Shown here in pieces: positions 26,423 through 62,580 of a stretch of 64,000 nt of DNA. The notes beneath the pieces were generated by a model. It saw only the letters and a list, made by a program, of their open reading frames with translations. It did not search any database and was not told the DNA's origin. Source of the DNA: Nocardia sp. BSTN01. Its GTDB lineage: Bacteria > Actinomycetota > Actinomycetes > Mycobacteriales > Mycobacteriaceae. Numbering within the stretch: the first letter of the stretch is position 1; the number at the start of each line of letters is the position of its first letter. The translations under genes were made by a program, and so were the position numbers. The stretch covers positions 62,001 to 126,000 of the forward strand of contig NZ_JADKYP010000012.1 of the NCBI RefSeq assembly GCF_015354405.1, read 5' to 3'.

Positions 26423-26495
26423 GGGCATCACCCTAGCGGTGAGAATCCGGGCCCCGAGCGGCAGCGTGGGCAAGGCGCCGGCCCGGCCTGCGACA

Positions 26496-28951: not shown

Positions 28952-28994
28952 CACAGCGTACGCCGAGGAGTCGGATCGGGAAATACCGGTCACA

Positions 28995-29105
28995 GCAGTG
29001 CGATAGCATCCGGGGGCTCGCCGATACGAGGAAAGCCGGTGCAATTCCGGTGCGGTCGCGCCACTGTGACAGTCAGACCCTCCGGGCGGGCGGCCGTATC
29101 CGCTA
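28995..29105 (+). promoter_or_regulatory. Cobalamin (adenosylcobalamin) riboswitch upstream of cobN
   Basis: The sequence has the cobalamin riboswitch core in order: GAGGAAAGCCGGTGCAATTC (29028-29047), CGGTGCGG, GCCACTGTGA (29060-29069) and AGTCAGACC (29071-29079), the last being the usual 3' conserved block. Upstream GATAGCATCCGGGGG could supply earlier helices. The riboswitch lies 25-135 bases before the cobN GTG on the same strand. It should lower cobN expression when cobalamin is plentiful. Exact ends are approximate. Confidence 0.85.
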
Positions 29106-29129
29106 TGGGCGCGTCACCCGAGGAGAACC

Positions 29130-39030: not shown

Positions 39031-39125
39031 CCGGCCTACGCTAATTGCTGACCGCCGACCGGGCCAACGGATTCGCCGGCGGGTGCGGCGAAACACTCCG
39101 GGACCCAACGCGACACGCCGTGCAA

Positions 39126-39144
39126 GTTTGCAGACGATGCAAAC
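39126..39144. promoter_or_regulatory. Palindrome GTTTGCA-N5-TGCAAAC between tldD and a TetR gene
   Basis: Perfect 7-bp arms around GACGA, near the middle of the 206-base gap between divergent starts 39030 and 39237. Its form is a typical TetR operator, so tldDE may be under the neighbouring TetR regulator. Confidence 0.65.
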
Positions 39145-39222
39145 ATGCACGAAATGCGGTGTGGCACCGACTGAAACGCGCGCGAAACGCCCAGCCTGCC
39201 GCAGGTTGCGGCACCGATGGCG

Positions 39223-39228
39223 TACTGT
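39223..39228 (+). promoter_or_regulatory. Probable -10 box TACTGT of a leaderless TetR transcript
   Basis: TACTGT ends 8 bases before GTG 39237; no ribosome site is present. Confidence 0.4.
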
Positions 39229-39236
39229 CTGCCCGC

Positions 39237-39890
39237 GTGCCGCCATCCGCACTCCGTGACCGCAAGCGGGAACGCACCCGCCGCTCCCTCCTCGAGGCTG
39301 CCGCCGACCTGTTCGAATCCCGCGGCTACGAGGCGACCACCGTCGCCGATATCGCCGCGACCGCCGAGGTGGGGACCAGGACATTCTTCAACTACTTCGA
39401 GAGCAAAGAGGAACTGCTCTTCCCCGAACCCGACGAACGCGTGACCGCGGCGGTGGCCGCGATCGCGAGCCGCCGCAGTGACGAACGCCCCGTCGAGGTG
39501 CTGCTGCGCGCGCTGCGGGCCGCCGGCGACAATCCCGGAGACCATCTCGGCGACGATCTCGCGGCCCGGATCGCGGTGTTGCGCGCCCAGGTCTCGCGCA
39601 CCGTTCCCGCCGTCAGCGGCCGGGCCGCACACGCCCAGCTGGCCGCGCAGCAGGAGATCGCGCGTCGGCTGCGCGACGCGTTCCCCGACGAATTGGACGA
39701 GGTCGGCGCGGCCGCGCTGGTCGGCGCTGTCGTCGGAGCGGTGTCGGGCGCGCTGACCGTGCTGTTCTCCGGCCGGCACGCGATCGAGGACGGGGAGCGA
39801 CTGCATCGCACCATTCGCGAGACCACATCGCGGGTGCTGGCGCCCTGGCTCTCGGCCGGGCGGCATCTGACCGCGGAGGCCCGCTGCTGA
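39237..39890 (+). CDS. TetR-family transcriptional regulator
   Basis: A 217-residue regulator. Helix-turn-helix: RKRERTRRSLLEAAADLFES, then TTVADIAATAEVGTRTFFNY with FESKEEL. The C-terminal domain is Ala/Arg-rich and helical, resembling the TetR_C subgroup often linked to multidrug or lipid genes. GTG 39237 follows a TACTGT box. It converges on the TauE/SafE gene with 7 bases between stops. The palindrome at 39126-39144 is the likely operator; its targets may be itself and tldDE. Confidence 0.85.
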   Translation: MPPSALRDRKRERTRRSLLEAAADLFESRGYEATTVADIAATAEVGTRTFFNYFESKEELLFPEPDERVTAAVAAIASRRSDERPVEVLLRALRAAGDNPGDHLGDDLAARIAVLRAQVSRTVPAVSGRAAHAQLAAQQEIARRLRDAFPDELDEVGAAALVGAVVGAVSGALTVLFSGRHAIEDGERLHRTIRETTSRVLAPWLSAGRHLTAEARC

Positions 39891-43275: not shown

Positions 43276-44871
43276 GTGAGTACCCAGTTGCTGGTCGGCG
43301 TCCGAATCTACAGTTCCAGTTCCCCCGATGCGACCACGATGGCGGTCACCGACGGCACCGTGGTCTGGCTGGGCGCCGAACGTCCCGGCCGCGCGCTGCA
43401 TCCCGACGCCGAAATCATCGATCTGGACGGCGCTTTCGTCGCCCCGGCCTTCGTCGATCCGCACGTACACGTCACCGCGCTGGGCCTGCAACTGACGGGT
43501 CTGGATCTGTCCCAGGCGAATTCGCTGGCGCAGTGCCTGGATCTGGTGCGCGCGTACGCCGCCACGCATGCCGGAACGATCATCGGCGACGGCTGGGACG
43601 AGACCCGCTGGCCCGAGGGGCGCCCGCCCACGGTCGAGGAGATCGACGCCGCGGCCGGGCCGGGCCGCGCGGTCTATCTGTCCCGCGTGGACGCCCATTC
43701 CGCCATCGCCTCGACCGCACTGCTCGACGCGGTGGCCGCCGTCCGCGCCGCCGCGGGATATACCACCGGCGCACCGCTTCGCGCCGACGCCCATCACCTC
43801 GTCCGCGAGGCCGCACTCGACGGTCTCGACCGCGCCCAGCGCGACCGGGCCCGGGCCACCGCACTCGATTACGCGGCCGCCCGTGGCGTGGTCGCCGTCC
43901 ACGAATGCGCGGGCCCGCAGATCTCCGGCCGCACCGATGTGCGCGAATTGCTGGAATTCGAGCACGGTGTCCAGGTGCGGGCGTATTGGGGTGAGGCCGT
44001 CACCTCCGCCGACGAGGCGCGGGCGCTGGTCGGCGAACTCGGCGTGCACGGGCTGGCCGGGGATCTGTTCGTCGACGGGTCCTTCGGCTCCCACACCGCG
44101 TGGCTGCGCGAGCCGTATGCCGACCGCGACACCACCGGCGTCTCCTATCTCGACGCCACGGCGATCGCCGCCCACGTCCGGGCCTGCACCGAGGCCGGGA
44201 TCCAGGCCGGATTCCACGCGATCGGCGACGCCGCCGTCGACGCGGTGGTCGAGGGCTTCGCCCGCGTCGCCGGCGAGCTCGGCGCACCGGCGGTGGCCAC
44301 CCGCGGCCACCGCCTCGAACACGCCGAACTGCTCGATGCCGCCCAGATCGCGAAACTGGCCGAATTCGGCGTGATCGCCAGTGTGCAACCGGGATTCGAC
44401 GCCGCCTGGGGTGGCGCCGAGGGAATGTACGCCACCCGGCTGGGCGCCGAACGCGCCGTGGCCACCAACCCGTTCGCGGCGATGGCCGCCGCCGGGATCT
44501 CCCTGGCCATCGGCTCCGACGCTCCGGTGACGGCGCTGAACCCGTGGGAGGCCGTCCGCGCGGCCGCGAACCACCGCACTCAGGGACACCACATCTCCCC
44601 GCGCGCGGCCTTCGCCGCCGCCACCCGCGGCGCGTGGCGAGCCGGCGGCGTGCGCGACGGCATCGCCGGCACGCTGGTGCCCGGCGCTCCCGCGAACTAC
44701 GCGATCTGGGACACAACGGAATTGGTGGTCGCCGCCGCCTCGGACACGGTGCAACGCTGGTCCACCGATCCGCGCTCCCGCGTGCCCGGCCTGCCGTCGC
44801 TGGACGAGGGCGCCGAACTCCCGCGTTGCCTGCGTACGGTCCGTGAGGGAGTCACCATCTACGCGGCCTGA
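43276..44871 (+). CDS. Amidohydrolase family protein (Amidohydro_3)
   Basis: A 531-residue metal-dependent hydrolase. Metal-binding segments: FVAPAFVDPHVHVTALGLQL (HxH), FHAIGDAAVDAVVEGFARVA, HRLEHAELLDAAQIAKLAEF (His) and ISLAIGSDAPVTALNPWEAV (Asp). It resembles the YtcJ-like/exoenzyme-regulatory AepA-type amidohydrolases. Substrate unknown. GTG 43276. It lies between the FxsA-family gene and lnt on the same strand. Confidence 0.9.
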   Translation: MSTQLLVGVRIYSSSSPDATTMAVTDGTVVWLGAERPGRALHPDAEIIDLDGAFVAPAFVDPHVHVTALGLQLTGLDLSQANSLAQCLDLVRAYAATHAGTIIGDGWDETRWPEGRPPTVEEIDAAAGPGRAVYLSRVDAHSAIASTALLDAVAAVRAAAGYTTGAPLRADAHHLVREAALDGLDRAQRDRARATALDYAAARGVVAVHECAGPQISGRTDVRELLEFEHGVQVRAYWGEAVTSADEARALVGELGVHGLAGDLFVDGSFGSHTAWLREPYADRDTTGVSYLDATAIAAHVRACTEAGIQAGFHAIGDAAVDAVVEGFARVAGELGAPAVATRGHRLEHAELLDAAQIAKLAEFGVIASVQPGFDAAWGGAEGMYATRLGAERAVATNPFAAMAAAGISLAIGSDAPVTALNPWEAVRAAANHRTQGHHISPRAAFAAATRGAWRAGGVRDGIAGTLVPGAPANYAIWDTTELVVAAASDTVQRWSTDPRSRVPGLPSLDEGAELPRCLRTVREGVTIYAA

Positions 44872-45079: not shown

Positions 45080-46672
45080 GTGCTGGGCGTGACGTGGCGG
45101 GTGTGGGGGAGGATCGGGGCCGCTGTCGTCGCCGGGCTGCTGGTGTTCGCGAGTTTTCCGCCCCGTACCTGCTGGTATCTCGCGCCGATCGGCATCGCGA
45201 TCCTGATCCTGGTCGTGCGCGACGCGCCGAGGTTGCGCGGCGGATTCGGTTACGGGCTGCTGGCGGGGCTCGCGTTCTTCCTGCCGCTACTGCCGTGGAC
45301 CGGCATCTACGTCGGGCCGGGGCCGTGGCTGGCGCTCTCGGCCGCGTGCGCGGTGTATGTCGGCCTGTTCGGGCTGCTGTCGCGGCTGGTGTGCGACCTG
45401 CCGGGCTGGCCGGTGTGGGTGGCGCTGATGTGGACGCTCACCGAATGGGGACGCTCCAGTTTTCCGTTCGGCGGATTCCCGTGGGGCCGGCTCGCTTTCG
45501 GGCAGGCCGACGGCTGGTATCTGCCGCTGGCCTGGCTCGGCGGCGCGCCGGTGGTGAGCTTCGCGGTCGCCCTGACCGGAACGGTTCTGGCCGCGCTACT
45601 GCTTCGGTTGCGTCCCCGGGCAAACGCACGGCGTGCGGTCGTAATTATCACTCTCGCAACGGTTGTGGCTATTATCCCGATTACCGGAGTGATCCTCCGG
45701 ACCGCGCTGCCCGCCCCGGACGACGGAGACCGGTCGATCACGGTCGCCGCTATCCAGGGCAGCGTGCCGCGGCTGGGCCTGGACTTCAACGCCCAGCGCC
45801 GCGCCGTGCTGGACAATCACATTCGCCGTACCGAGGAACTGGCCCGCGCGGTCGCCGCGGGCACCGCGGCACAGCCGGATGTGGTGATCTGGCCGGAGAA
45901 TTCCTCCGATATCGACCCGCTGCGCAATTCCGACGCCTACGACGAGATCACCGCCGCCTCCCGCGACATCCACGCCCCGATCCTGGTGGGCGCCGTCCTC
46001 GTCAACGACGACCGCACCACCACCAATTCGGTGATCGTGTGGGACGCCGACGGGCCGGGGGAGCGCCACGACAAGAAAATCATCCAGCCGTTCGGCGAAT
46101 ATCTGCCCTATCGCGGCTTCTTCCGCCACTTCTCCAGCTACGCCGACCGCGCCGGCTACTTCGTGCCCGGTCACGGCGACGGTGTCGTGCACGCCCGGTC
46201 GGCCGGCGGAGGCCCGATGGTCGCGATCGGCGTGGCAACCTGCTACGAGGTCGCCTTCGACCGGGCCTTCGAGGATTCGCTGCGCGCCGGTGCGCAACTG
46301 CTGACCGTCCCTACCAACAACGCCACCTTCGGCGACAGCGATATGACCTATCAGCAGCTGGCCATGTCGCGAGTGCGAGCCGTCGAACACGGCCGGGCGC
46401 TGGTGGTCGCCGCGACGACCGGCGTCAGTGCCGTTGTCACCGCCGACGGTGCGGTGCGACAGCAGACCGCCAAATTCGTGCCCGATGCACTCGAGGCGAC
46501 ACTGCCGTTGCGCAGCGAAACGACACCCGCGACGGCGATGGGTCCCCTCCCGGAACGCATGTTGTGTATTCTTGCTGCGGCCGTTGTCCTGGTTGCGGCT
46601 ATCCGGCGGCGAACGATGCGCTCGGCGCATCGGACCGATGAGGACGTCACCGGCGACCGGGCATTCGACTGA
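45080..46672 (+). CDS. lnt: Apolipoprotein N-acyltransferase Lnt
   Basis: A 530-residue membrane enzyme that adds the third acyl chain to lipoproteins. The N-terminal half has six to seven helices (AAVVAGLLVFASFPP, YGLLAGLAFFLPLLPW, and WTLTEWGRSSFPFGGFPWGR before the fourth). The C-terminal half is the extracytoplasmic nitrilase-like domain with a Glu-Lys-Cys triad: VVIWPENSSD (Glu), DKKIIQPFGEYLPYRGFF (Lys) and GVATCYEVAFD (Cys). A last helix is near residue 505. In mycobacteria lnt is fused or adjacent to ppm1; here no ppm1 follows, and an NRPS gene begins 370 bases later. Confidence 0.93.
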   Translation: MLGVTWRVWGRIGAAVVAGLLVFASFPPRTCWYLAPIGIAILILVVRDAPRLRGGFGYGLLAGLAFFLPLLPWTGIYVGPGPWLALSAACAVYVGLFGLLSRLVCDLPGWPVWVALMWTLTEWGRSSFPFGGFPWGRLAFGQADGWYLPLAWLGGAPVVSFAVALTGTVLAALLLRLRPRANARRAVVIITLATVVAIIPITGVILRTALPAPDDGDRSITVAAIQGSVPRLGLDFNAQRRAVLDNHIRRTEELARAVAAGTAAQPDVVIWPENSSDIDPLRNSDAYDEITAASRDIHAPILVGAVLVNDDRTTTNSVIVWDADGPGERHDKKIIQPFGEYLPYRGFFRHFSSYADRAGYFVPGHGDGVVHARSAGGGPMVAIGVATCYEVAFDRAFEDSLRAGAQLLTVPTNNATFGDSDMTYQQLAMSRVRAVEHGRALVVAATTGVSAVVTADGAVRQQTAKFVPDALEATLPLRSETTPATAMGPLPERMLCILAAAVVLVAAIRRRTMRSAHRTDEDVTGDRAFD

Positions 46673-47042
46673 CGGCCACCGCAACTCTCCCGGACAATCA
46701 CACATCGCGGGTACCCACGAATCGATCTTTCTCACACTCCGTCGATTCCGGGCCGCCCATCCGCATTCGCCGACCGGTTGCACATCCGGATGCCGCGTGC
46801 TGTCGATCTCGTCCTTGACGGGCTATCAGAGCGGAACGGCTGCGATTTGCGGTGAAATAGCTATCTAATTGCTCCATCCGCCTGTGGCGTTCGCGGCCGA
46901 AGATCACGACATCGTTACCAGTCCGGCCGCAACGGGGCTCCGAATCATAGGGCGTGGATCACGTCCTCCCGTTGGCGCGCGCTTTTCCGCCCGCGGATGG
47001 GGACCGGGGAGTTGCGTATACAGCGGCAGAACGGAGTGATTG
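46673..47042. other. Promoter region of the NRPS operon; no ppm1 remnant seen
   Basis: No frame here resembles ppm1 or any other family. A local AT-rich stretch, GGTGAAATAGCTATCTAATT (46852-46871), includes the palindrome ATAGCTAT and may be part of a promoter or regulator site. No canonical iron box is visible. GGAG at 47034-47037 serves ATG 47043. Confidence 0.5.
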
Positions 47043-50000
47043 ATGAGTTCATTGGCCACCGATCGTGTCGACCAATGTGCTTCCGGCGAATTCTCAGCAC
47101 AACCCTTCGCTCTGTCACCGGCGCAAACCGCCCTGTGGTACGCGCAGCGGATTCGACCCGATGTGCCACTGACCATCGCACAGTACGTGGAAATTCACGG
47201 TGATCTCGACGTGGGCCGGCTGCTCTACTCGATCGAGCGGTTCGGCACGGAATCCCAGGTGGGCCAGTTGCGCGTCGTGGAGATCGACGGCGTGCCGCAG
47301 CAGGTGGTGGATTCGGCGCATCGGCCCGGCTGGGCTCGGATAGATCTGCGCCAGGAACCCGATCCGCGCGCGGCGGCGCTGCGATGGATGAACGAGCACG
47401 CCAGCAGCCCGATCGAGATCGAACACGAGCCGCTGACCATCAACGTCGTCCTGCGCCTCGGCGACCAGGACTACATCTGGTACTGCCGTGCTCACCACAT
47501 CGTCATCGACGGCTACGGCGCCATGAACGCGCTGACCCGCACCGCCGAGATCTACACCGCGCTGGAGAATCACACCGAGCCCTCGGTCTCGCGGGCCACC
47601 CCGCTGGCGGAGATCTATGCGGGGGAGTCGCAGTACCGGGAGTCGAGCCGCTATCGGGCCGATCAGGAGTACTGGCGTGAGCAGCTGGTGGGGGTGGGCG
47701 CGCCGCTGACACTGTCGTCGTCGGGGATCGCCTCGTCCACCCCGGATCCCGGCCGGCGCATCGCGGCGGCCGTGCTCGACGCCGATACCGAGGCCGAACT
47801 CGCCACTGCCGCTGCCACATTCGACTCGCAGAACTCGGCACTGGTGGTCGCGGCGCTGGCGGGGTACGTGCGCGCGGCGACCGGCACCTCCGATGTGGTG
47901 CTGAGCCTGCCGATGTCCGCGCGGACCACGGTCGCGCTGCGCCGCTCGGCCGGCGTGGTGTCGAACGTGGTGCCGATCCGGGTGCGCTTCGACGCCGGCA
48001 CCACGGTCGCCGACGTCGTCAAGGCGACCGAACTGCAGATCACCGGCGCCCTACGGCACCAGCGTTACCGCCACGACGACATCAGACGCGACTGCGGTTA
48101 TTCGCGCGATGCCCGCGGCTTCTTCGGCCCGATGGTCAACATCATGCTCTTCCACAGCGAGCTGAACTTCGGCAGCTTCGTCGGCTCGCTGAACGTGCTG
48201 TCCACCGGCCCGGTCGAGGATCTGTCGATCAACCTCTACAACGGCGAGGGCGGGCGCATCCACGTCGATTTCGAGGCCAATCCTCAGCTCTACGGCGCGG
48301 CCGAGCTGACACGTCACCATGAGCGGTTCCTCGACTATCTGAACCGCTTCCTCACCGCCGATCCGGCCGAGCCGATCGCGGCGGTGCCGGTGATCACCGA
48401 CGCCGAACGCGACGAGGTGCTGCGGCAGTGGAACGCGACCGCCGTGCCGGAGCAGCCAGGGACCCTCGCCGATCGGTTCGGGGCGCAGGCACGGGCCACG
48501 CCGAATGCGATCGCGCTCGAATTCGACGGCGACACACTGACTTACGAACAGCTACGACAGCGCGCGGATCGGCTGGCGCGCATGCTGATCGCCCGCGGCG
48601 CCGGACCCGACACGGTCGTGGGCCTGGCCATGCGGCGCAGTCTCGACCTGGTGGTCGGGATGTACGCCATCGTGCGCGCGGGGGCGGCCTATCTGCCGAT
48701 CGATCCCGATCATCCGGCCGAGCGCACCGCGCACATCCTCGACCAGGCCGCCCCGCTGTGCGTACTGACCGCGGCCCGGGACGAGGCCGACCTGCCCGGC
48801 GACGTCGCGGTGATCGATGTGCAGCAGCTCGGCACGGCCGATTCCGGCGCCGAACCGCCGATCACCGACGCCGACCGGCGCGCACCGCTGCGCCGCGACC
48901 ACCTGGCGTACGTGATCTTCACCTCCGGCTCGACCGGTAAACCCAAGGGCGTCGGCATCACCCACGCCGCCATCGTGAACCGCCTGGCGTGGATGCAGCA
49001 CCGCTATCCGCTCGACGACAGCGACACCGTCCTGCAGAAGACTCCCGCGACCTTCGACGTGTCGGTATGGGAGTTCTTCTGGCCGTTGCAGATCGGCGCG
49101 CGGCTGGTGATCGCGGCACCGGACGGCCACCGCGATCCGGCTTATCTCGCGCGGATCATCGCCGAAAAGGGCGTGACCACCGCCCATTTCGTGCCCTCGA
49201 TGCTGTCGGTGTTCGTCACCGACACCGATGTGCGCGGCTGCGACGGACTGCGCCGGGTGTTCTGCAGCGGTGAGGCGCTGCCCGCGGCGACCGTGCGTGA
49301 TTTCCACGCCGTCGTTCCCGGCGCGCGGCGGGCCGGATCCCCGGCATCGGCCGACGGCGCGCAGTTGCACAATCTGTACGGGCCCACCGAGGCGGCCGTC
49401 GACGTCACCTATTGGGCGTGCGCGCCGGAGAACGACGTCGTCCCGATCGGCGCGCCGGTCTGGAACACCCAGGTCTACGTCCTCGACGAGACGTTGCGAC
49501 CGGTCGCGCCCGGTGTGATCGGCGAACTGTATCTGGCCGGCGTGCAGCTGGCCCGCGGTTACCTGGGCCGCCCCGCCCTGACCGCCGACCGCTTCGTCGC
49601 CAATCCGTTCACACCCGGCGAGCGCATGTATCGCACCGGCGACCTGGTGCGCTGGCGGATGGATCCGATCCCCCCGGCGACCGGCGCGGACCGGCTGCCC
49701 GCGGTCCTGGAATACCTGGGGCGCAGTGACTTCCAGGTCAAGATCCGCGGCCAGCGAATCGAACTCGGCGAGGTCGAGGCGGCACTGCTGGCCGACGAGC
49801 GGATCGCCCGCGCGGTCTGCGTCGCCCACACCACGCCGGGCGGAGACGAGCTGGTCGGCTATGTGGTGGCCGCGCCGGGGCACACCGTCGACAGCGTCGC
49901 CATGATCGCCGACCTCCGTGGCGTACTGCCCGGGTACATGGTGCCCACCGTGATCGTCGTACTCGGCGAAATGCCGTTGAGCGCCAACGGAAAGATCGAC

Positions 50001-53000
50001 CGCAAGGCGCTGCCCGCACCGGAGGCGCCCGCGCGCCGCGGCGGCGACAGCATCGTCGAGCCGCGCACGGCCACCGAACGGCAGATCGCCGCCCTGTTCA
50101 CCGAGGTCCTCGGCTGCGAGAGCCTGGGCGTCGAGGACAGCTTCTTCGACCTCGGTGGCAATTCGCTGTCCGCCGCACGGGCCGTGGCGCGGATCAACGC
50201 CGCCTTCGGCTCCGGGCTGACCATCCGGGATCTGTTCGAATCGCCGACGGTCGCCCAGCTCGCCGAGCGGATCGGTGAGCACGGCGTCGACCGGTCCTCC
50301 CCGAAACTGGTGGCCGGCCCACGGCCGCAACGCATTCCGCTCTCGCTCGCGCAGCAGCGGCTGTGGATCCTCAATCGTTTCGCCGAACACGCCGGCGCCT
50401 ACAACATGCCGCTGGCCGTCGAGCTGACCGGACCGCTCGAGGTCGAGGTGCTGCGCGCCGCACTGCTCGACGTGCTCGAACGGCACGAGAGCCTGCGCAC
50501 CACCTTCCCCGATTCGCCGACCGGCCCGACCCAGGTGATCCACGAGCCCGCCGAGATCCCGCTGAACCTCGAGCCGATCGACGTCACCGGTGCCGACGCG
50601 CTCGCGCTGGCCACCGAATACGCCGGATACGGCTTCGATCTGCGCAGTCAGGCGCCGATCCGGGTGGCGCTGTACGCCACCGGACCCGACGTACACGTCT
50701 TCCTCATCGTCCTGCACCACATCTGCGGCGACGGCTGGTCGGTGGCGCCGCTGGCTCGCGATCTGATGGGTGCGGTCGCCGCGCGCACCACCGGACAGGC
50801 CCCGCACTGGGCGCCGCTGCCGGTGCAGTACGCCGACTTCGCGCTGTGGCAGCGCGAACTGCTGGGCGACGAGACCGATCCCACCAGTGCGCTGGCGCGG
50901 CAGCTGGCCTACTGGCGCACCGCCCTGGCCGAACTGCCCGATCAGCTGGACCTTCCGCTGGATCGCCCGCGCCCGCGGCAGCGCGATACCGCCGGTGGCC
51001 GAGTCGAATTCACGATTCCGGCCGAAACCCGCCGCGCGGTCGCCGACGTGGCCGCCGAGCGCGGCGTCAGCACGTTCATGATCATGCACGCGGCGTTGGC
51101 GAGCCTGCTCTCGCGTCTGTGCAACACCACCGATATCGCCATCGGCACCCCGATCGCCGGGCGCTCCGATCCGGCGCTCGACGATCTGGTCGGCATGTTC
51201 GTCAACACTCTGGTGCTGCGCACCGAGGTCGACCCGGCCACCGGATTCGACCGCATGCTCGATCGCGTCCGCGAAACCGACCTCGATGCCTTCGCCAATG
51301 CCGATGTGCCGTTCGAGCGGCTGGTCGAGGTCGTCAACCCGTCCCGCGACGCCGGCCGCCACCCGCTGTTCCAGGTGATGCTGTCCTACGAGAACTCGCC
51401 CGAACTGCGGGTCGACCTGCCCGGTCTCAGTGCCCGGGTGCTGCCGATGGACGTCGGTGTCGCGAAATTCGATCTCCAACTGATCGTCCACGACAGCGAT
51501 GCCGCCGATGCCGAGGACGGCCCGCTGAGCGCCGAATTCGGTTACGCCGCCGACGTTTTCGACCATGCCACCGTGCAGGCCGTGGCCCGGCGTTTCGTCC
51601 GGCTGCTCGACGCCGCGGTCGTCGCGCCGGAGACCGCGGTCGGTGATCTGCCGATCCTCGACGCCCGCGAGATCGGCAATCTGGTGCCGATCGCCGGTGC
51701 GCCGGGCGTGCCGCCGCTGAGCCTGGCGCGGCTGCTGCACGAAACCGCGGAGCGGGTCCCGGATCTGGTCGCGGTCCGATACCGGGGCCGCGACACCACC
51801 TACCGGGAGATCGACGAGGCCTCCAACCGGCTGGCCCGGGTGCTGATCGAACACGGCGCCGGACCCGAGGTGGTGGTCGCTATCGCCTTGCCGCGCAGCC
51901 TGGCCTCGATCACCGCGATCTGGGCGGTCGCCAAGACCGGCGCGGCCTATGTGCCGGTCGACCCCGGCTATCCCGCAGAACGCATCGAGCACATGCTCAG
52001 CGATTCCGGTGCGATGCTCGGCCTGACCGACGCCCCCAGCCACGCCGCCATGCCGGAACGGCCGATGCACCGTGGCCGGCACCGCAAACAGGGCGCCGAC
52101 TGGCTGCTGCTGGATTCTCCCGTCCTCACCCATGCCCTGGCGCGGGTCTCGTCGGCGCCGGTCACCGATCGGGATCGGCTACTGCCGCTGCGCATTTCGC
52201 ATCCGGCATATCTGATCTACACCTCCGGTTCGACCGGCAAACCCAAGGCTGTCGTGGTCACCCACGGCGGTATCGCCTCGCTGGCGCACGAGCAGATGCA
52301 TCTGTTCAAAGTCAACGATATGGCGCGCACGCTGCACTTCTCCTCGCCCTCCTTCGACGCCTCGGTACTCGAACTGCTACTGGGTTTCGCCGCGGGCGCA
52401 ACGATCGTGGTCGCCCCGGCCGGACTCTACGGCGGCGCCGAACTCGCGCGGCTGCTGCGCGACGAGCGGATCACCCACGCGTTCATCACCCCGGCCGCGT
52501 TGGCGACCGTATCGCCGGACGGCCTCGATGATCTCGAGGCCGTGATCGTCGGCGGTGATGCGTGCCCGGAGGATCTGGTCCGCACCTGGACCGCCGGACA
52601 TCGCATGCACAACATGTACGGGCCGTCCGAGGCGACCGTCGCCGCCACCGCCAGCGACCCGATGGTCGCGGGCCGCCCCGTCCCGATCGGCAAACCGGTG
52701 CGCGGGATGCGGCTGTTCATCCTGGACCACCGGCTGCATCCGGTGCCGCCCGGCGTCGCGGGGGAGTTGTACATCTCCGGCCCCGGCCTGGCCCGCGGCT
52801 ACCTCGGCCGCCACGGGCTGACCTCGACCCGGTTCCCGGCGAATCCGCACGGGCGCCGCGGCGAACGCATGTATCGCACCGGTGATCTCGTGATGACCGA
52901 CGGGAACGGTGTGCTGCGCTTCTTGGGTCGCGCGGACGATCAGGTGAAGATTCGCGGTTTCCGCATCGAGCTGCGCGAAATCGACCATGTGCTGCGCGCG

Positions 53001-56000
53001 CACCCGGGTGTGCGATTCGCGATGACCGTCGTGCACACCGGTGAGCACGGGGCCGCCCGGCTGGCCGCGTACCTGGCCGCCGACGCCGGCGCCGACGTCG
53101 ACCCGGCCGAGGTGCGCGAGACCGCGCGCCGCCATCTGCCCGCCTATATGGTGCCCGCCGCGATCACGGTGCTGGACCGGGTACCGGTGACTCCGGCCGG
53201 CAAGGTCGACCGCAAGGCGCTGCCCGCGCCCGTCTTCACCTCCGCCGGGCCGACGCGGGCGCCGGAATCGGAGCTCGAGAAGCGGGTCGCGCAGGTCTTC
53301 GCGACGGTGCTCGGCCATGCCGTACCCGGCGCCGAGGACAGCTTCTTCGACGCCGGCGGCAACTCGCTGCTGGCGACGCGGCTCACCGCCGCGCTGCACG
53401 CCGAATTCGGTGTCGAACTGCCGGTCCGGGCCGTCTTCGAAACGCCCACCGTGGCCGGGGTCGCGGCCCACCTGGAAGACGCGCCGCGCACGAACCGGGT
53501 GGCGCTGACACAGTACGACCCGCGCCCCGCCCGGATTCCGCTGTCGTTGCCGCAGCAGCGCATGTGGTTCCTGAACCGCTACGCACCCGAATCCAGCGCC
53601 TACAACATCGCTTTCGCGTTGCGCATCGACGGCGACCCGGATCTGCCCGCACTGCGCGCCGCCTTGGCCGATCTGGTCGACCGGCACGAGGTGCTGCGCA
53701 CGATCTTCCCCGAGGATCAGGCCGGCCCGTATCAGCTGGTTCTCGGCTCCGACCGCTGCCTGCCGGTGCTGGAACCCGTGGTGACCGACGAACGCGGCTC
53801 TCAGCTGGCGCTGCGCGGCCTGGCCCAGCGCGGATTCGACCTCACCCGCGAGATCCCGTTGCGAATGACGGTGCTGCGCACCGGAATCCGCACCTACCAG
53901 CTGGGCATCGTGGTTCACCACATCGCCGCGGACGGCTGGTCGCTGGGACCGCTCACCACCGATCTGATGGTCGCCTACACCGCGCGCCGCGACGGCGCGG
54001 CCCCGGCGTGGGCGCCGCTGCCGGTGCAGTACGCCGATTTCAGCCTGTGGCAACGCGAATGCCTCGGTGACGTTTCCGATCCGGCCAGCGCCGCGGCCGT
54101 GCAGCTGGGGTTCTGGCGCGACACCCTCGCCGGCCTGCCGGAGGAACTGCCGCTGCCCTACGACCGGCCGCGTCCGGCCGAGCCGACCAACCGTGCGGGC
54201 ACCGTCCGGATCCGGATGCCGGAAGAACTGCGCGAGCGGCTCGACGACCTGGCCCGCGCACAGGGTGTGAGCATGTTCATGGTGCTGCGCTCAGCGCTGG
54301 CGGTGGTGCTGCGCATCGTCACCGGCGGCCGCGACATCGTCATCGGCACGCCGGTGGCCGGGCGTGCCGACACCCGCCTCGACGACCTGGTCGGCATGTT
54401 CGTCAACACCCTGATGCTGCGCTCGGACGTCGATCCCGACCAGACCTTCGCCGATCAGCTGCGCGCCGACCGCGACGGTGAACTCGCCGCCATGTCGCAT
54501 GCGGAACTGCCGTTCGAGCGCATCGTCGAGGAACTCGGCCGCGACAACGGCGGAGTGCGGCCGCTGCTGCAGGTCGCGCTCATCGTGCAGGACACCACAC
54601 CACCGGCCCTCGAACTGCCCGGGCTGCGGTTGCGGGCCCAGGAACTCGACATCGCGGTGGCCAAGTTCGATCTGGAACTGCGGGTGCCCGCCGATGCCGG
54701 TGACCTCGAAATGGTCTATGCCGCAGAGCTTTTCGACGAGGACACGGTCTGCACGCTGGCCGAGCGGCTGCTGCTGGTGCTGGATTCGGTCAGCGCCGAC
54801 GCCCACGTCCGGGTGCGCGACATCGATGCGCGTACCGACATCGAACGCACGCACTTCACCCCGCGCCGTGGCCCGGCCGCCACCCCGCAGTGCAGCCTGG
54901 CGAACTACTTCACCGCCACCGCGCACCTGCATCCGCACCGCACCGCGATCCGCAGCGGCGACCACGAGCTCAGCTACGCCGAGCTGGAGCGCTGCTCGAA
55001 TCGGATCGCCCGCGCCCTGATCGCGCGCGGCGTCGGCAGCGGCGACCGGGTGGCCGTCGGGCTGACCCGGTCGATCGAATCGGTGGCCGCCGCCCTGGCC
55101 GTCACCAAAGCCGGTGCGGCGTTCGTCCCCGTCGATCCGAACTATCCGGCCGACCGCGTGCGGCACATGCTCACCGACTCCGGATGTGCGCTCGGCATTT
55201 CCGTGACCGCCCACCAGGAGCGGCTGCGCCGCGCCATCGAGGGCAACGGCTCGGCGCCGGGCACCGAGTGGCTGCTGCTCGACGACGCGACGCTGCGCGC
55301 CGAGCTGGACGCGCACGACGAGCGCACGATCACCGACGCCGAACGGCGGCGCACGGTGTGGACGACCGACCTGGCCTACCTGATCTACACCTCCGGTTCG
55401 ACCGGAAAGCCGAAGGGCGTGGCCGTCACGCATGCCGGGCTGTCCAATTTCGCCGACGAGATCCGTGAGCGGATGCGCATCGACCGCGACGCCCGCACCC
55501 TGCATTTCGCGAGCCCGAGTTTCGATGCGGCCGTGCTGGATCTGCTGCTGGCGATCGGCGCCGGCGCCATCATGGTGATCTGCCCGCCCGACATCTACGG
55601 CGGCGACGAGCTGGCCGCCCTGATGGATCGCGAATGCATCAGCCACACCTTCATGACCCCGGCCGCGCTGGCCACCATCGACCATCGGCGCTGGCCGCTG
55701 CCGCACCTGCGCGCGATCATGGTCGGCGGCGAGGCGGTCGGCACCGATCTGATCGCGCGCTGGGCGCCGGGCCGGATGCTGTTCAACGGATACGGCCCGA
55801 CCGAGACGACCATCGTGGTCACGATTTCCGACCCGATCGCGGTCGGTGACCAGGTGACCATCGGCTCGCTGGTGCGCGGGGTGCACGCGGTGGTACTCGA
55901 CGAGCGGCTGCGGCCCGTCCCGATCGGCGTACCGGGCGAGTTGTATCTCGGCGGCCAGTCCGTCGCGCGCGGCTACTTCGACCGTCCCGATCTCAGCGCG

Positions 56001-59000
56001 GCGCGGTTCGTCGCCGACCCGTACGGGCCCGACGGCGCGCGCATGTACCGCACCGGCGATGTGGTGCGCTGGCGCGCCGACGGCGCGATCGTCTACCTCG
56101 GCCGCAGCGACCACCAGGTGAAGCTGCGCGGTTTCCGCATCGAACTCGGTGAGATCACCGAGGTGCTGGCCGCGCACCCGGCGCTGCGGTTCGCCCACAC
56201 CGAGGTGCGCGAGATCGCCGGCACACCGCGGATCGTGTCCTACGTCCAGCCCGCCGAACCCGGCGCCGACATCGACGTCGAGGCGCTGCGGACCCATGTG
56301 GCCGCGCACCTGCCGGCGCATATGGTGCCCGGCAGCGTCACCGTGCTGGACCGGATTCCGCTGACCCCGGTCGGCAAACTCGACCGCGACGCGCTGCCGG
56401 AACCGCAGCAGATCACCACCGCGGCGCGGGAACCGGGCACCGACACCGAACGCCTGGTCGCGCAGGTGATGGCCGAGTTGATCGGCGCAGAATCCGTCGG
56501 CGCGGACGACAATTTCTTCGAGATCGGCGGAAACTCGCTGCTGGCAACGCAATTGGTGGCCCGGCTGAGCGACGCGACCGGGGTGCGGGTGCAGGTGCGG
56601 TCGGTCTTCGGCGCCCCGACCGTGGCCGAACTCGCCGCCCTGCTCGACGGCGGCACGGGCGAGGGCGACCACGGCCCCGCCCTGACCCGGCGTGAGCGCC
56701 CGGCCCGGGTGCCGCTCTCGGCGGCGCAGCGGCGGCTGTGGTTCCTCAACCGGTTCAACGCCTCCTCGGCCGAGGATCTGTCCGGTGTCTACAACGTGCC
56801 GGTCGCCCTGCGGATGCGTGGTGCGCTGGACGTGGCGGCGTTGCGCGCGGCGCTGCACGCGGTGCAGCGGCGGCACGAAACGTTGCGCACGGTCTTCCCG
56901 GAAGTCGAGGGCGAGCCGTACCAGCGGGTGCTCGCACCCGGCGAGGCCGCGGTGGCACTGCCGGTCGTCGACGTCGACGAGGGCGAAATCGCCGGCACCG
57001 TAAGGACTTTCGCGGCTGCCGGATTCGACCTCGCGTCGACCGCACCGCTGCGGGCGCAGCTGCTGCGCATCGCCGCCGACGATCACGTCCTGGTCCTTGT
57101 CGTCCACCACATCGCCATGGACGGCTGGTCGCTGGAACCGCTGGCCGCCGATATCGCGGGTGCGTACCGGTCGTATGCGGCCGGCTCGGCGCCGGAATGG
57201 GACGAGCTGCCCGTCCAGTACGCCGATTACACGCTGTGGCTGCAGGACACGCTGGGCGCGGAGGACGATCCGGAATCGCCGATCAGCCGCCAGCTCGACT
57301 ACTGGCACGAGGCGCTGGACGGTCTTCCCGAACTGTTGCCGCTGCCCACCGACCGGCGCCGCCCGGCGACGCCGAGCTACCGCGGCGGCACGGTGGATTG
57401 CGTCCTCGACGCCGTCACCCACCGCGAACTGCAGGTCGTCGCCGCCCGCCACGGTGTCACGATGTTCATGGTCCTGCACGCCGCGCTGGCCTCGCTGCTG
57501 CACCGGATCAGCACCGAACACGACATCACCGTCGGCACGCCGATCGCCGGACGCGGACAGCAGGCCCTCGATCCGATGGTCGGCATGTTCGTCGGCACCC
57601 TGGTGCTGCGCACGCCGGTGAGCGGCGCGCAGACCTTCGCCGATCTGCTCCGCGCCGTGCGCGACACCGACCTCGAGGCCTTCGCGCATGCGGACGTGCC
57701 GTTCGAGCGGCTGGTCGAGGTGCTCAATCCGGCGCGCTCGCAGGCGCATCACCCGATGTTCCAGGTGATGCTCTCGGTGCGGAATCAGCCGGTACGCAGC
57801 CTGGAACTGCCGGAGCTGACGATCGAGGCGTGCGACGCCGATCCGGGGATCGCGAAATTCGATCTGCAGTTCACCCTCACCGAATCGTGGACCGAACAGC
57901 GGGAACCGGCCGGGATCACGGTCTCGGTGAATTTCGCCCGCGACCTGTTCGACGACACGACCGCCGCCCGCCTCGGCGCGCGTTTCGCCCGGTTGCTGCG
58001 GGCCGCGGCCACGAATCCCGAACTGCCGGTGGGTGATCTGGAACTGCTCGACCCCACCGAATGGACGACGCTGGCGCCGGTGCGGGGTGCGCTCGCCGGG
58101 CGGCCGGGAACGCTGCCCGAGGTCTTCGCCGCCGCGGTGGCCGTCGATCCGCGGGCGATCGCCCTGCGCACCGAAGACGCCGAGATCAGCTACGGTGCGC
58201 TCGACCGGTGGACCAACCGGCTGGCCCGGGTGCTGATCTCGCTCGGTGCCGGACCGGAAACGCTGGTGGCCCTGGGTATTCCGCGGTCGATGGAATCGGT
58301 GGCGGTGACCCTGGCGGTGGCCAAGGCGGGTGCGGCGTTCGTGCCGGTCGACCCGAACTACCCCGAACACCGCATCGCCCACATGCTCACCGATTCCGGT
58401 GCCAGCCTGGGCATTACGCTCGCCGCCCACCGCGATCGGATGCCCGCGGGCGCCGAATGGGCGGTCCTGGACGCGCCGGCTCTGCAGGAGCGTGTGCTGC
58501 GCGCCTCCGATGCGCCGATCGCGCCACACGAGCGGCGGGGCCGGTTGCGCATCGAGAACCCGGCCTACGTCATCTACACCTCCGGCTCGACCGGCACCCC
58601 GAAGGGTGTGGTGGTCACCCACGGCGGTCTGTCGAATTTCGCCGCCGAAACCGCCGAACGGTTCGACGTGCGACCCGACAGCCGGGTGCTGCACTTCGCC
58701 ACCCCGAGCTTCGACGCCGCCATGCTGGATCTGCTGTTCGCGCTGGGCGGGGCGGCGACGCTGGTCATCGCGCCCACCGGGGTGTACGGCGGTCCGGATC
58801 TGGCGCGGTTGCTGGCCGAGGAGGACATCACCCACGCGTTCATCACCACCGCCGCGCTCGGCACGGTGGATCCGACCGGCCTCGACTCGTTCCGGCACGT
58901 GCTCGTCGGCGGCGAGGCGCTGCCGCCGGAGCTGGTGGCGCGCTGGGCGCCCGGCCGGAACCTGCACAACGTGTACGGACCGACCGAGACGACCATCGTC

Positions 59001-60692
59001 ACCCTGATGGCCCCGCCGATCGCACCGGGTGCGCCGATCACCATCGGCGAACCGATCCGCGGCGTGCACGCGGTGGTGCTGGATTCGCGGCTGCATCCGA
59101 CCCCGGCCGGCGTGGTCGGCGAACTGTACCTGTCGGGTCCGGCGCTGGCGCGTGGGTACCACCACCGCACCGGGCTCAGCGCCCAGCGGTTCGTGGCCAA
59201 CCCGTTCGGCAAACCGGGCGAACGCATGTACCGCACAGGCGACCTGGTGCGCTGGGTGCAGCGCGGCGGCCGCGCCGAGGTCGAATACGTGGGCCGCACC
59301 GACCACCAGGTCAAGATTCGCGGTTTCCGGATCGAACTCGGCGAGATCGACGCCGCGCTGCACCGCCACGACCAGGTCGAATGGGCCACCACGATCGGTC
59401 ACCGCACCGCCGCGGGCGCCACCGCGCTGGTCTCGTATGTGAAAGCGCGCGCCGGCACGAATCCGACGGCGGCGCAGCTGCGCACCCATGTGGCCGGTCT
59501 GGTGCCGAGTTATATGGTGCCGCAATCGATCATGCTGCTGGAGTCGGTGCCGTTGAGCCCGGTCGGCAAGCTGGATCGCAAAGCGCTTCCCGAACCGGTC
59601 TTCGCCGCCGAACACGGCTACCGCGCGCCGTCGGGCCCGCTGGAGACGGCCGTCTGCGCCGCCTTCGCCGAGGTGCTGGGGGTCGAGAAGGTCGGCGCCG
59701 ACGACGGGTTCTTCGATCTGGGCGGCAACTCGCTGCTCGCGACGAAGGTGGTGGCCCAGTTGCGTTCGGCCGGAATCGAGATGCCGGTGCAGCTGATGTT
59801 CGCCGAGTCCACCCCGGCCGGTATCGCCCGGCAGCTGGCGGCCTCCGGTGAGGATGTGCTGGCGGTCGCGATGCAGCCGCTGTTGCCGATCCGGCCCGTG
59901 AGCGAGTCGATGGTGGAGCCGCTGTTCTGCGTGCATCCGGCGATCGGGCTGTCGTGGTGCTACGCGGGCCTGCTGGCGCATCTGCCCGGCGACCGCCCGG
60001 TCTACGGGCTGCAGGCCCCGCACATCACCGGTGCGCAGGAGCACGACTCCATCCGGGCGGCCGCGAAAGATTATGTCGCGCATATGCGTTCGGTGCAGCC
60101 GGAGGGGCCGTACCATCTGCTCGGCTGGTCGCTGGGTGGTCTGATCGCGCACGAGATCGCGGTCCAGCTGCAGGACGCGGGCCAGCAGGTGGCGCTGCTG
60201 GCGATGATGGACAGCTACCAGCTCGGCGATCGCTGGCTCGACCAGGCGATGCCGGGCGTGGCCGACATCATCGGCGAATTCGGCAGCGATCTGCTCGGTG
60301 GCGACCACGGCGTGGATCCGGGTCTGACCCTGGACGAGGCGGCCGAGCTGCTGCGCAACCGGCCCGGCCCGTTCGCGGCGCTGACGATGGACCATCTGCA
60401 GCGGCTCTACACCGGATACGCCAACGGCACGGTGCAGGCGAACGGATTCCGGCCGCGGGTCTTCGACGGTGATCTGCTGTTCTTCACCGCCGCCGACGAC
60501 GAGATCAACCTCGCCGACCCGCAACGCTGCGCCGCGGCGTGGGAGCCGTTCGTGACGGGTGTGATCTCCGACCGCAAACTGCGCTGCCGGCATTCCGGCA
60601 TGACGACGCCGGAAGCGCTGGCCGTCATCGGCCCGGTGCTGCGGCAACAACTCGAGGCCGCCGCCGGCGGCGACACGGAGGAGACGCTGTGA
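47043..60692 (+). CDS. Four-module nonribosomal peptide synthetase, C-A-T x4 plus TE
   Basis: A 4549-residue NRPS. Approximate domains: C1 21-456, A1 474-990, T1 1010-1078, C2 1097-1540, A2 1560-2061, T2 2077-2145, C3 2163-2596, A3 2617-3118, T3 3134-3203, C4 3220-3670, A4 3690-4183, T4 4198-4267, TE 4287-4549. C domains keep HHxxxDG (HHIVIDG, HHICGDG, HHIAADG, HHIAMDG). Carrier sites are GGNS. TE has GWSLGG. No epimerisation or methylation domain is seen. C1-A1 resembles EntF. By eye-alignment to GrsA, A1 reads DVWHFSLVD(K), a serine code. A2-A4 read DALFIGMVA, DALFMGGIV and DALFLGVIV, mutually related but not assignable. C1 must receive an acyl donor in trans. Start ATG 47043 has GGAG; the stop overlaps the ABC gene. 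Confidence 0.95.
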
Positions 60693-61678
60693 GTTTGGCA
60701 GTGGAAGTCACCGATCTGGTCAAGACCTACGGTAAGGCCCGGGTGCTCGACGGCATCGATCTGGAGATCCCCTCGGGGACCGTGATGGGTCTGCTGGGTC
60801 CCAACGGCGCCGGGAAGACGACGACGGTCCGGATCGTCACCACCCTGTTGAAACCGACCTCCGGCAACGTCCGGGTCGCCGGGGTCGACGTGGTGCATCA
60901 TCCGGCGCAGGTGCGCACCCGGATCGGGCTGTCGGGGCAGTACGCCGCGGTCGACGAGAACCTGTCCGGATTCGAGAACCTGCGGATGGTGGCCCGGCTG
61001 TACGGCATGGACCACAAGAAGTCCGCCGAGCGCGCGACCGAACTGCTCTCGGCGCTGGGACTGGAACACGCGGCCGGCCGGCGTGCGGGCACCTACTCCG
61101 GCGGTATGGCCCGCCGCCTGGACCTCGCCGGTGCGCTGGTGGCGCGGCCCACGGTGGTGGTACTCGACGAGCCGACCACCGGTCTGGACCCGCGCGGGCG
61201 ACTCGATATGTGGAAGGTCATCGGCGATCTGGTCGACGACGGCACCACCGTGCTGCTGACCACCCAGTATCTGGAGGAGGCCGATCAGCTGGCCGACCGG
61301 ATCACCGTGATCGACAAGGGCAAGGTGATCGCCCGCGGCTCCGCCGACGAATTGAAGACTTCGATCGGCGGCGACCGGCTCACCGTCACCCTCGCCGAGG
61401 GACAGGACCCCGGCCCGGCGAAGTCCGTGCTGAGCGAGGTCGGGCTCGGGGAGCCGATCCACGAACCGGGCGCCGATCACGTCTCGATCGTGGTCGGCGA
61501 CGGCACCCGCACCATGGTCGAGGCACTGCGCCGGCTCGACGACGCGGGGGTGTGCGTCGTGGACGCGGAGGTGACCCGGCCGAGTCTCGACGATGTGTTC
61601 CTGTCGCTGACCGGTACGCCCGCCGAGCCGATCGAAGAATCCGAAACCGAAGACGTAGCAGAGGAGATCATGTCGTGA
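60689..61678 (+). CDS. ABC transporter ATPase, DrrA type
   Basis: A 329-residue ATP-binding subunit. Walker A is [16 protein letters not shown], the signature is [20 protein letters not shown], Walker B is [16 protein letters not shown], and the switch His is replaced by a Gln in [17 protein letters not shown], as in DrrA. The C-terminal extension ([18 protein letters not shown] to [11 protein letters not shown]) is the DrrA-type tail. GTG 60689 overlaps the NRPS stop (GTGA), with GGAGGAG upstream. With the next gene it should export the NRPS product and may give self-resistance. Confidence 0.93.
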
Positions 61679-62580
61679 GTACCGTCGAAGCGGCGGTCGC
61701 CGAATCGGAGACGGCGGCAGAGCCCACGCAGACAGACGCGGCGGTGACGCGGCCCGACATCGACAGTGACGTCCATACGATCGCGGCGCCGGTCCGGGTC
61801 TTCCGCGACAGCGCGATCATCGCCTACCGCAATCTGCTCACCATCCTGCGGGTGCCGACGCTGCTGGTGACCGCGACGGTCCAGCCGTTGATGTTCGTGT
61901 TCCTGTTCGCCTACATCTTCGGGGCGTCGCTGGGCGGCGGCCAGTACCGCGAATTCCTGCTGGCCGGCATCTTCACCCAGACGGTCGCCTTCAACGCCGC
62001 GTTCACCACCGTGGGCCTGGCCAACGACCTGCAGAAGGGCATCATCGACCGGATGCGCACGCTCCCGATGTCGCGGATGGCGGTGCTGATGGGGCGCACC
62101 CTGTCCGACACGGTGGTCAACGTGGTGGCGCTGGCCGTCATGGTGGCCTGCGGTTATCTGGTCGGATGGCGGATCAACGGCTCGGTGGCCGATGCGGCGC
62201 TGGGGTTCGCGATCATCCTGCTGTTCGCGTTCGCGATGTCGTGGGTGGGCGCGCTGACCGGGCTGATCGCGCCGAATGTCGAGGTCGCCCAGAGCGCCGG
62301 GCTGATCTGGCTGTTCCCGGTCACGTTCATCTCCTCGGCCTTCATCTCCGCCGAGACGCTGCCGGGCCCGCTGCGTTCGATCGCGGAATGGAATCCGATC
62401 ACCGCGGTGTCGGCATCCGGCCGGAAACTGTTCGCCAACAGCTCACCGCCGACCTTCGCCGCCCCGCACGGCTGGCCGGTCGACCACTGCGTGGAGTACG
62501 CGGTGGCGTGTTCGGTGGCGATTCTGGCCGTGGCGGTGCCGCTGGCGTTGCTGCAGTACCGCAAGGTGGCCAGCCACTAG
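61675..62580 (+). CDS. ABC transporter permease, DrrB type (ABC-2)
   Basis: A 301-residue permease. After a 35-residue acidic soluble start come six hydrophobic segments, including PLMFVFLFAYIFGASLGGGQ, VVALAVMVACGYLVGWRING and ALGFAIILLFAFAMSWVGAL. The ABC-2 signature region is GLIWLFPVTFISSAFISAET, then LPGPLRSIAEWNPITAV. GTG 61675 overlaps the ATPase stop (GTGA); GAGGAG precedes it. The three genes NRPS-drrA-drrB form one tightly coupled operon, ended by a hairpin 15 bases later. Confidence 0.93.
   Translation: MSTVEAAVAESETAAEPTQTDAAVTRPDIDSDVHTIAAPVRVFRDSAIIAYRNLLTILRVPTLLVTATVQPLMFVFLFAYIFGASLGGGQYREFLLAGIFTQTVAFNAAFTTVGLANDLQKGIIDRMRTLPMSRMAVLMGRTLSDTVVNVVALAVMVACGYLVGWRINGSVADAALGFAIILLFAFAMSWVGALTGLIAPNVEVAQSAGLIWLFPVTFISSAFISAETLPGPLRSIAEWNPITAVSASGRKLFANSSPPTFAAPHGWPVDHCVEYAVACSVAILAVAVPLALLQYRKVASH

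What the first reader, a model, noticed from the sequence alone, without database searches (positions are those of the whole stretch)
47043..60692. Uncharacterised four-module NRPS with an EntF-like serine first module
Module 1 (C1-A1) follows EntF closely in motif wording (QRYRHDDI region, [25 protein letters not shown]), and its code reads as serine. In EntF that C domain takes 2,3-dihydroxybenzoate from a carrier protein. Here three more modules follow, with no second EntF-like module. The predicted product is an acyl- or aryl-capped Ser-X-X-X peptide released by the TE, either linear or cyclic. I know of no described nocardial product with this order.
Basis: partly seen in the sequence, partly recalled or inferred. 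Interest (0 to 1): 0.85.

Follow-up and report, generated by a model that had tools for sequence, protein, structure and literature searches.

The report
Nocardia-wide four-module lipopeptide synthetase
This giant gene builds an unknown small peptide that starts with serine and is probably capped with a fatty acid; every Nocardia genome checked carries it, and the cluster, but not its product, is already described in print.

Summary
One open gene (47043-60692, + strand) encodes C-A-T x4 plus a thioesterase. A1 carries the serine code DVWHFSLVDK; A2-A4 carry related hydrophobic codes.

It is not special to this strain: an orthologue is in 149 of 149 Nocardia genomes tested, with a DrrAB-type exporter directly downstream. 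It matches the four-module NRPS of Komaki 2014 (seven strains, line #25) and Männle 2020 (all Nocardia, GCF 4), product unknown.

The EntF/aryl-cap reading is not the best one. C1 matches the lipid-loading starter domains of RzmA and CDA better than EntF. At the site that sets acyl length in RzmA it has Ala in 79 of 80 named relatives. No 2,3-dihydroxybenzoate enzyme reaches its cut-off; the best aryl-AMP ligase sits beside a salicylate synthase on another contig.

Best model: acyl-Ser-X-X-X, X hydrophobic, released by the TE and exported by DrrAB. The 'N-acyltransferase' printed as part of the cluster reads as housekeeping lnt. The same synthetase lies between lnt and rbpA in Antrihabitans, Skermania and a Rhodococcus sp. 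Leaf247 group. No chemistry was tested.

The parts
47043..60692 (+). four-module NRPS, C-A-T-C-A-T-C-A-T-C-A-T-TE, 4549 aa
   Evidence: orthologues in 149 of 149 Nocardia genomes
47106..48416 (+). C1, starter condensation domain, HHIVIDG; Ala at the RzmA R148 position
48540..49817 (+). A1 adenylation domain, serine code DVWHFSLVDK
50331..51671 (+). C2, ordinary elongation C domain (HHICGDGWS)
51720..53222 (+). A2 adenylation domain, code DALFIGMVAK
53535..54848 (+). C3, elongation C domain (HHIAADGWS)
54894..56396 (+). A3 adenylation domain, code DALFMGGIVK
56709..58064 (+). C4, elongation C domain (HHIAMDGWS)
58110..59580 (+). A4 adenylation domain (ends estimated from A2 and A3), code DALFLGVIVK
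59919..60605 (+). thioesterase domain, GWSLGG
   Evidence: nearest solved TE 7crn, 169.5 bits, EntF TE 77 bits
60689..61678 (+). DrrA-type ABC exporter ATPase; GTG start overlaps the NRPS stop by 4 bases
   Evidence: TIGR01188 342.7 bits, cut-off 312.45; coordinates
61675..62580 (+). DrrB-type ABC-2 exporter membrane protein; GTG start overlaps drrA by 4 bases
   Evidence: PF01061 97.4 bits; 67.8 bits, below the drrB subfamily cut-off of 223.05; same strand and 14.0-15.2 kb from C1 in 132 of 132 genomes with both on one contig
45080..46672 (+). lnt, apolipoprotein N-acyltransferase: common flank, not judged part of the pathway
   Evidence: TIGR00546 278.9 bits, cut-off 132.9; present with and without the NRPS
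43276..44871 (+). amidohydrolase, common flank
   Evidence: PF07969
62646..63011 (-). rbpA, common flank on the other strand
   Evidence: PF13397

Best explanation
It is a lipo-tetrapeptide synthetase common to the genus Nocardia. Proposed mechanism: (1) C1, a starter condensation domain, joins a medium- or long-chain acyl group (acyl-CoA, or acyl on a carrier protein in trans) to L-serine loaded by A1 on T1; (2) modules 2-4 add three L-amino acids with hydrophobic side chains (aliphatic or aromatic; no epimerisation domain found); (3) the TE releases the acyl-Ser-X-X-X peptide, linear or closed as a lactone on the serine hydroxyl or on a beta-hydroxyl of the acyl chain; (4) the DrrAB exporter, whose genes overlap the NRPS end, carries it to the envelope or outside. 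Shown by sequence: domain order, serine code, starter type of C1, small gate residue, gene overlaps with the exporter, conservation and synteny. Inferred: acyl (not aryl) cap and its length, identity of X, form of release, site of action.
For: C1 against the PDB: RzmA starter 209 bits, CDA starter 183, EntF 152.5; identity CDA 33% (partial), RzmA 30%, EntF 26%. Zhong 2021 (PMC7804268, passages): RzmA R148 sets acyl length, a smaller side chain gives a longer chain, and Y138A/M143A/R148G moves the preference to C14, up to C16. Window C1 has Ala at 138 and 148; EntF has Tyr and Phe. Position 148 is Ala in 34 and Ser in 1 of 35 unnamed Nocardia loci, Ala in 79 and Ser in 1 of 80 named loci. A1 serine code in 19 of 19 synthetases read; among the 11 Nocardia of these A4 is identical in 11 and A2 is the same but for I/M at one position in 11. 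C2-C4 are ordinary elongation C domains and group away from C1. DrrA over its curated cut-off, 4-base overlaps, same strand at constant distance in 132 of 132. No DHB enzyme over cut-off.
Against: No product has been seen; nothing chemical was tested. The C1 tree leaves EntF, RzmA, CDA and one own-genome starter unresolved at its base and EntF is a long branch, so the lipid reading rests on scores and pocket residues, not on the tree. Position 143 is Ile, not small, and position 138 varies among the 80 named loci (A 36, G 31, V 10, M 2, S 1). No fatty acyl-AMP ligase or stand-alone acyl carrier gene appeared among the 20 window ORFs scanned, and none was searched for elsewhere, so the acyl donor is unknown. 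No MbtH match on this contig; four over cut-off lie on other contigs.
Confidence: 0.68

Rival explanations
1. Aryl-capped peptide: C1 takes 2,3-dihydroxybenzoate or salicylate from a carrier protein, as EntF does, giving a siderophore-like aryl-Ser-X-X-X.
For: C1 is in the starter family that includes EntF and ObiF1; A1 code equals the EntF code (equality recalled); module 1 hits the EntF model over residues 23-1080. The genome has a salicylate synthase (513.7 bits, cut-off 325.15) and a nearby aryl-AMP ligase.
Against: EntF is the last of the 7 PDB sequences at E<=1e-40; the EntF Tyr/Phe pair is absent; best DHB dehydrogenase match 168.3 bits of 300 needed; the aryl-AMP ligase scores 647.1 of 723.55 and lies next to the salicylate synthase on contig C181, as printed for nocobactin cluster II (PMC7413640, passage). 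Hydrophobic A2-A4 pockets suggest no iron ligands. Aryl carrier proteins were not searched for.
Confidence: 0.1
2. Humimycin-like antibiotic locus: the NRPS is the positional counterpart of the larger synthetases found near lnt in other genera, and makes an acyl peptide aimed at cell-wall synthesis of competitors.
For: In 6 of 20 further non-Nocardia regions downstream of lnt another NRPS follows: five frames run over 5400 aa to the edge of the stretch, L096 is cut at a contig end at 3668 aa. Ser is the second A code found in five of the six (not L090); in L093-L096 the first and third are DALF/DAMF types, the order of predicted humimycin A Tyr-Ser-dTyr (PMC12024397, table passage). Humimycin clusters are printed as holding an amidohydrolase and an N-acyltransferase (PMC5550956, section 8).
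Against: Their C1 domains fall outside the 14-row clade of the four-module family; residue number and order differ; humimycin is a predicted, synthesised product; I could not confirm that iupU lies beside lnt, and the pattern search may have missed A domains. Presence in every Nocardia tested fits a house function better than a weapon.
Confidence: 0.12
3. Short-acyl or uncapped peptide: C1 takes acetyl or another small donor, or is idle, and the product is a small peptide.
For: No lipid-activating gene among the 20 window ORFs scanned.
Against: Intact HHIVIDG motif; the RzmA domain, whose natural chain is C2, has Arg at the gate, here Ala in nearly all copies.
Confidence: 0.1

Closest known systems
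Nocardia GCF 4 (Männle 2020, PMC7413640) and line #25 (Komaki 2014, PMC4035055)
   Same: four-module single NRPS in all genomes of each study; GCF 4 also: N-terminal Ser, three unpredicted residues, two transporters and an N-acyltransferase beside it
   Different: no difference found; this report reads the N-acyltransferase as housekeeping lnt and adds the lipid-cap evidence and the other genera. Identity with both is inferred from the description, not from accession numbers.
Starter-C lipopeptide synthetases (RzmA rhizomide, CDA)
   Same: starter C domain type; small gate residue as in members that take longer chains
   Different: four modules, Ser first, DrrAB genes overlapping; substrates not tested
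EntF (enterobactin)
   Same: C-A(Ser)-T start and a TE at the end
   Different: three further modules, 26% C-domain identity, no DHB enzyme over cut-off, below the EntF model cut-off
Humimycin synthetases of Rhodococcus (IupU)
   Same: NRPS with starter C, printed with an amidohydrolase and an N-acyltransferase in the cluster
   Different: predicted heptapeptide with D-residues and Ser second; the possibly related synthetases near lnt read here have C1 domains of other branches

Membership tests
Nocardia GCF 4 / line #25 cluster | single NRPS of four modules | tested here: met
Nocardia GCF 4 / line #25 cluster | Ser first, three residues not predictable (GCF 4) | tested here: met
Nocardia GCF 4 / line #25 cluster | N-acyltransferase and two transporters beside it (GCF 4) | tested here: met
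   lnt, drrA, drrB
Nocardia GCF 4 / line #25 cluster | present in all Nocardia | tested here: met
   149 of 149 sampled genomes, one per species
Nocardia GCF 4 / line #25 cluster | accession-level identity with the published genes | not tested
   supplementary tables not available here
EntF (enterobactin synthase F) | NCBIfam equivalog NF007605 score of 2400 or more | tested here: not met
   1988.4 whole protein, 804.5 first 1533 aa
EntF (enterobactin synthase F) | single C-A-T-TE module | tested here: not met
   four modules
EntF (enterobactin synthase F) | DHB supply genes in the genome | tested here: not met
   TIGR04316 best 168.3 of 300, TIGR02275 best 647.1 of 723.55; aryl carrier protein not searched
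Starter-C lipopeptide synthetase | first domain is a starter C domain | tested here: met
   best PDB matches RzmA and CDA starters; separate from elongation C domains with 99/97 support
Starter-C lipopeptide synthetase | small residue at the acyl-length gate | tested here: met
   Ala
Starter-C lipopeptide synthetase | C1 condenses a fatty acyl donor with the first residue | not testable with these tools
   needs enzyme assay
Humimycin synthetase | seven residues in the order Tyr-Ser-dTyr-Phe-dThr-Val-Val | tested here: not met
   four modules, Ser first

The most novel reading that the evidence does not exclude
The product is a core, near-primary lipopeptide of the cell envelope in Nocardia and sister genera: made by every species, exported by its own DrrAB pump, vertically kept at the lnt-rbpA locus, and needed for normal surface or hyphal growth rather than for warfare or iron. 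The larger synthetases near lnt in other genera would be its evolutionary replacements.
Probability: 0.3. Interest if true: 0.72.

Novelty: already known. Interest (0 to 1): 0.46.

Why it matters
This gene is in every one of 149 Nocardia genomes tested here, while the best known Nocardia siderophore cluster, nocobactin, is printed as present in 92 of 101 genomes (PMC7413640, passage). A 13.6-kb gene kept by a whole genus of soil bacteria and opportunistic pathogens, with conserved substrate codes and an overlapping exporter operon, points to a molecule that matters to all of them, yet none of the papers seen here reports it. The lipid-cap prediction tells chemists where to look (hydrophobic acylated tetrapeptides in lipid extracts) and what not to expect (a catechol siderophore). 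The reading of lnt as a neighbour removes a likely false tailoring enzyme from the cluster.

Tried and rejected
Serine-first EntF-like module as something special: rejected, the same ten-letter code occurs in 7 other modules of the own-genome stretches fetched, and one other own-genome synthetase (L004) also begins with Ser behind a starter C domain. DHB cap: rejected as above. lnt as lipidating enzyme of the pathway: rejected. lnt is in 35 of 36 non-Nocardia genomes tested (the miss is 66% complete). Of 20 regions fetched downstream of it, 13 have lnt and rbpA with no NRPS found between, 6 have another NRPS near lnt (in L094 beyond rbpA) and 1 ends at a contig edge. Of 80 named C1 loci 11 have no lnt in the 3 kb upstream, 3 of them Nocardia. 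RNA structure in the 370-base leader: z -0.70, nothing. Sigma-70 promoter or terminator in the leader: none found. Novelty of the cluster: rejected after finding it in print. Reading X from the codes: left open, as a comparison with known Leu, Val or Tyr codes would be from memory only. L084 gave no codes because the script took an antisense frame; it is left out of the 19 read. The TE query was in a wrong frame, so its TE rows are void; one search has the corrected one. G148 was but not in the second genus sample, so it is not in the colinearity count; 14 more have C1 and drrB on different contigs.
Full report
WHAT IS THERE. The window is bases 62001-126000 of contig C24 of a 7.79-Mb genome. 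The gene runs from ATG 47043 (or TTG 47040) to 60692 without a stop. Pfam gives 4 Condensation, 4 AMP-binding, 4 AMP-binding_C, 4 PP-binding and 1 Thioesterase stretches and no other family.

SUBSTRATE CODES. Codes were taken by aligning A-domain cores and reading nine positions plus Lys. A1 DVWHFSLVDK, A2 DALFIGMVAK, A3 DALFMGGIVK, A4 DALFLGVIVK. That the first is the serine code of EntF is recalled. The same script shows it in 7 other modules of the own-genome stretches fetched, so it is not a mark of EntF descent. Over 19 synthetases of the family that could be read (of 20; L084 failed), A1 is identical in 19 of 19. In the 11 Nocardia among them A4 is identical in 11 of 11, A2 is DALF[IM]GMVAK in 11 of 11, and A3 varies. 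The hydrophobic pockets fit aliphatic or aromatic residues, as Männle 2020 also states (passage).

HOW COMMON. C1 as query found an orthologue, 58-100% identical, in 147 of 149 sampled Nocardia genomes; the open frame is 4452-4735 aa in 132 of the 147 and shorter in 15. Of the 15, 13 have C1 and drrB on different contigs, but G028 and G072 have them on one and may hold a frame break. The other two genomes, both in many contigs, carry the end of the gene at 71% and 66% identity, so 149 of 149. drrB was sought in a second sample of 148 genomes. Where C1 and drrB lie on one contig they are on the same strand 14.0-15.2 kb apart in 132 of 132; 14 more are split between contigs and G148 was not in the second sample. 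For G055 the best drrB match is weak (1.9e-74).

THE LOCUS. In 11 further Nocardia loci fetched (L076-L086), drrA and drrB follow in 11 of 11, rbpA is seen in 10 of 11, and a long lnt match lies upstream in 9 of 11; L077 has only a fragment and L078 none. Among 80 named C1 loci, 69 have lnt on the same strand within the 3 kb upstream; the 11 without are 3 Nocardia (N. elegans, N. veterana, N. vermiculata) and 8 Rhodococcus. Their C1 domains (seven of these eight loci were put in the tree) form one clade with the Nocardia ones, support 99/98, 14 rows. The family search (301 genomes; 27 of 31 genera have some C1 match at E<=1e-40) also lists many matches on frames of other lengths, which I did not study.

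OTHER SYNTHETASES NEAR lnt. Of 20 further regions fetched downstream of lnt, 13 have lnt and rbpA with no NRPS found between, 6 have another NRPS and 1 ends at a contig edge. Five of the six frames exceed 5400 aa and run to the edge of the stretch; L096 is cut at a contig end at 3668 aa. Their C1 domains belong to other branches. Ser is the second code found in five of six (not L090), and in L093-L096 its neighbours are DALF/DAMF types, the order predicted for humimycin A (PMC12024397, table passage). Ceniceros 2017 (PMC5550956, section 8 read) says humimycin clusters hold a conserved amidohydrolase and N-acyltransferase, which fits this locus; I could not confirm it for iupU (PMC2947987, passages, gives only its locus tag).

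THE CAP. C1 against all PDB sequences: RzmA starter domains 209, 207 and 204 bits, CDA 183 and 182, ObiF1 171, EntF 152.5. That 7c1h/7c1k/7c1p are RzmA follows from the paper's use of 7C1H and its R148A and H140V variants. Zhong 2021 (PMC7804268, passages) showed that R148 of RzmA controls acyl length, that shorter side chains give longer chains, and that Y138A/M143A/R148G moves the preference to C14, up to C16. The alignment used here puts CDA Met at that site, as the paper does. The window C1 has Ala at 138, Ile at 143 and Ala at 148; EntF has Tyr and Phe at 138 and 148. Position 148 is Ala in 34 and Ser in 1 of 35 loci, and Ala in 79 and Ser in 1 of 80 named loci, where 138 is A 36, G 31, V 10, M 2, S 1. 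Six of the seven other own-genome starters in the tree also have Ala at 148, so this marks the type in general. The tree does not resolve EntF, RzmA and CDA against each other. On supply: the best aryl-AMP ligase (C181, 647.1 of 723.55 bits) lies next to the only salicylate synthase over cut-off (C181), and no DHB dehydrogenase reaches its cut-off (best 168.3 of 300). Aryl carrier proteins and fatty acyl-AMP ligases were not searched for.

EXPORT AND FLANKS. By coordinates the drrA start overlaps the NRPS stop by 4 bases and drrB overlaps drrA by 4, so the three genes look translationally coupled. DrrA passes its subfamily cut-off (342.7 of 312.45); DrrB is an ABC-2 membrane protein below its own. 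lnt passes its equivalog cut-off and is found with or without the NRPS, so the N-acyltransferase that Männle 2020 lists beside the NRPS is best read as a housekeeping neighbour.

PRIOR WORK. Komaki 2014 (PMC4035055, passages) lists a four-module NRPS common to seven strains, composition not predictable. Männle 2020 (PMC7413640, passages) describes GCF 4 in all Nocardia with Ser plus three residues. That both are this gene is inferred from the description. Nine paper searches were made; no passage seen in the seven papers opened names a product of this gene, and most subscription journals are not in that library.

VERDICT. A real, genus-wide synthetase, already in print as a cluster, with an unknown and probably fatty-acylated product. 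Interest comes from its universality and from the fact that a single deletion plus lipid LC-MS would settle it.

Noticed in passing
window 45080-47043; L067:2740-3573; L087: A polyprenol-phosphate mannosyltransferase-like frame (named by eye) follows lnt in Antrihabitans and in g31 but the 370-base gap between lnt and the NRPS here has no room for it; best own-genome match is only 46% identical, on contig C181.
   Followed up: partly
L089, L090, L093-L096: Other genera hold synthetases with C1 domains of other branches near lnt, possibly humimycin type: the lnt-rbpA neighbourhood looks like a favoured home for NRPS genes.
   Followed up: partly
L126:1366-2793: In N. elegans an integrase-like ORF (23.7 bits, below the Pfam cut-off of 27.1) lies upstream of the NRPS where lnt would be expected.
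   Followed up: no
G028:C15 and G072:C1: Two Nocardia genomes have C1 and drrB on one contig at normal distance but a shorter open frame (2986 and 3861 aa): possible frame break or assembly error.
   Followed up: no
G000 contig C139, L004-L006: Very large synthetases rich in Ser codes in the same genome, probably the Ser-rich clusters of Komaki 2014.
   Followed up: no
window 36071-39384: A PmbA/TldD-like metallopeptidase pair on the minus strand.
   Followed up: no
window 24210-32753: Cobalamin-type genes: tetrapyrrole methylase, CbiC, CobN.
   Followed up: no
window 3-2306: Minus-strand part of a larger frame that runs beyond the window, with a condensation-like stretch at its edge and an adenylation-like motif.
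   Followed up: no
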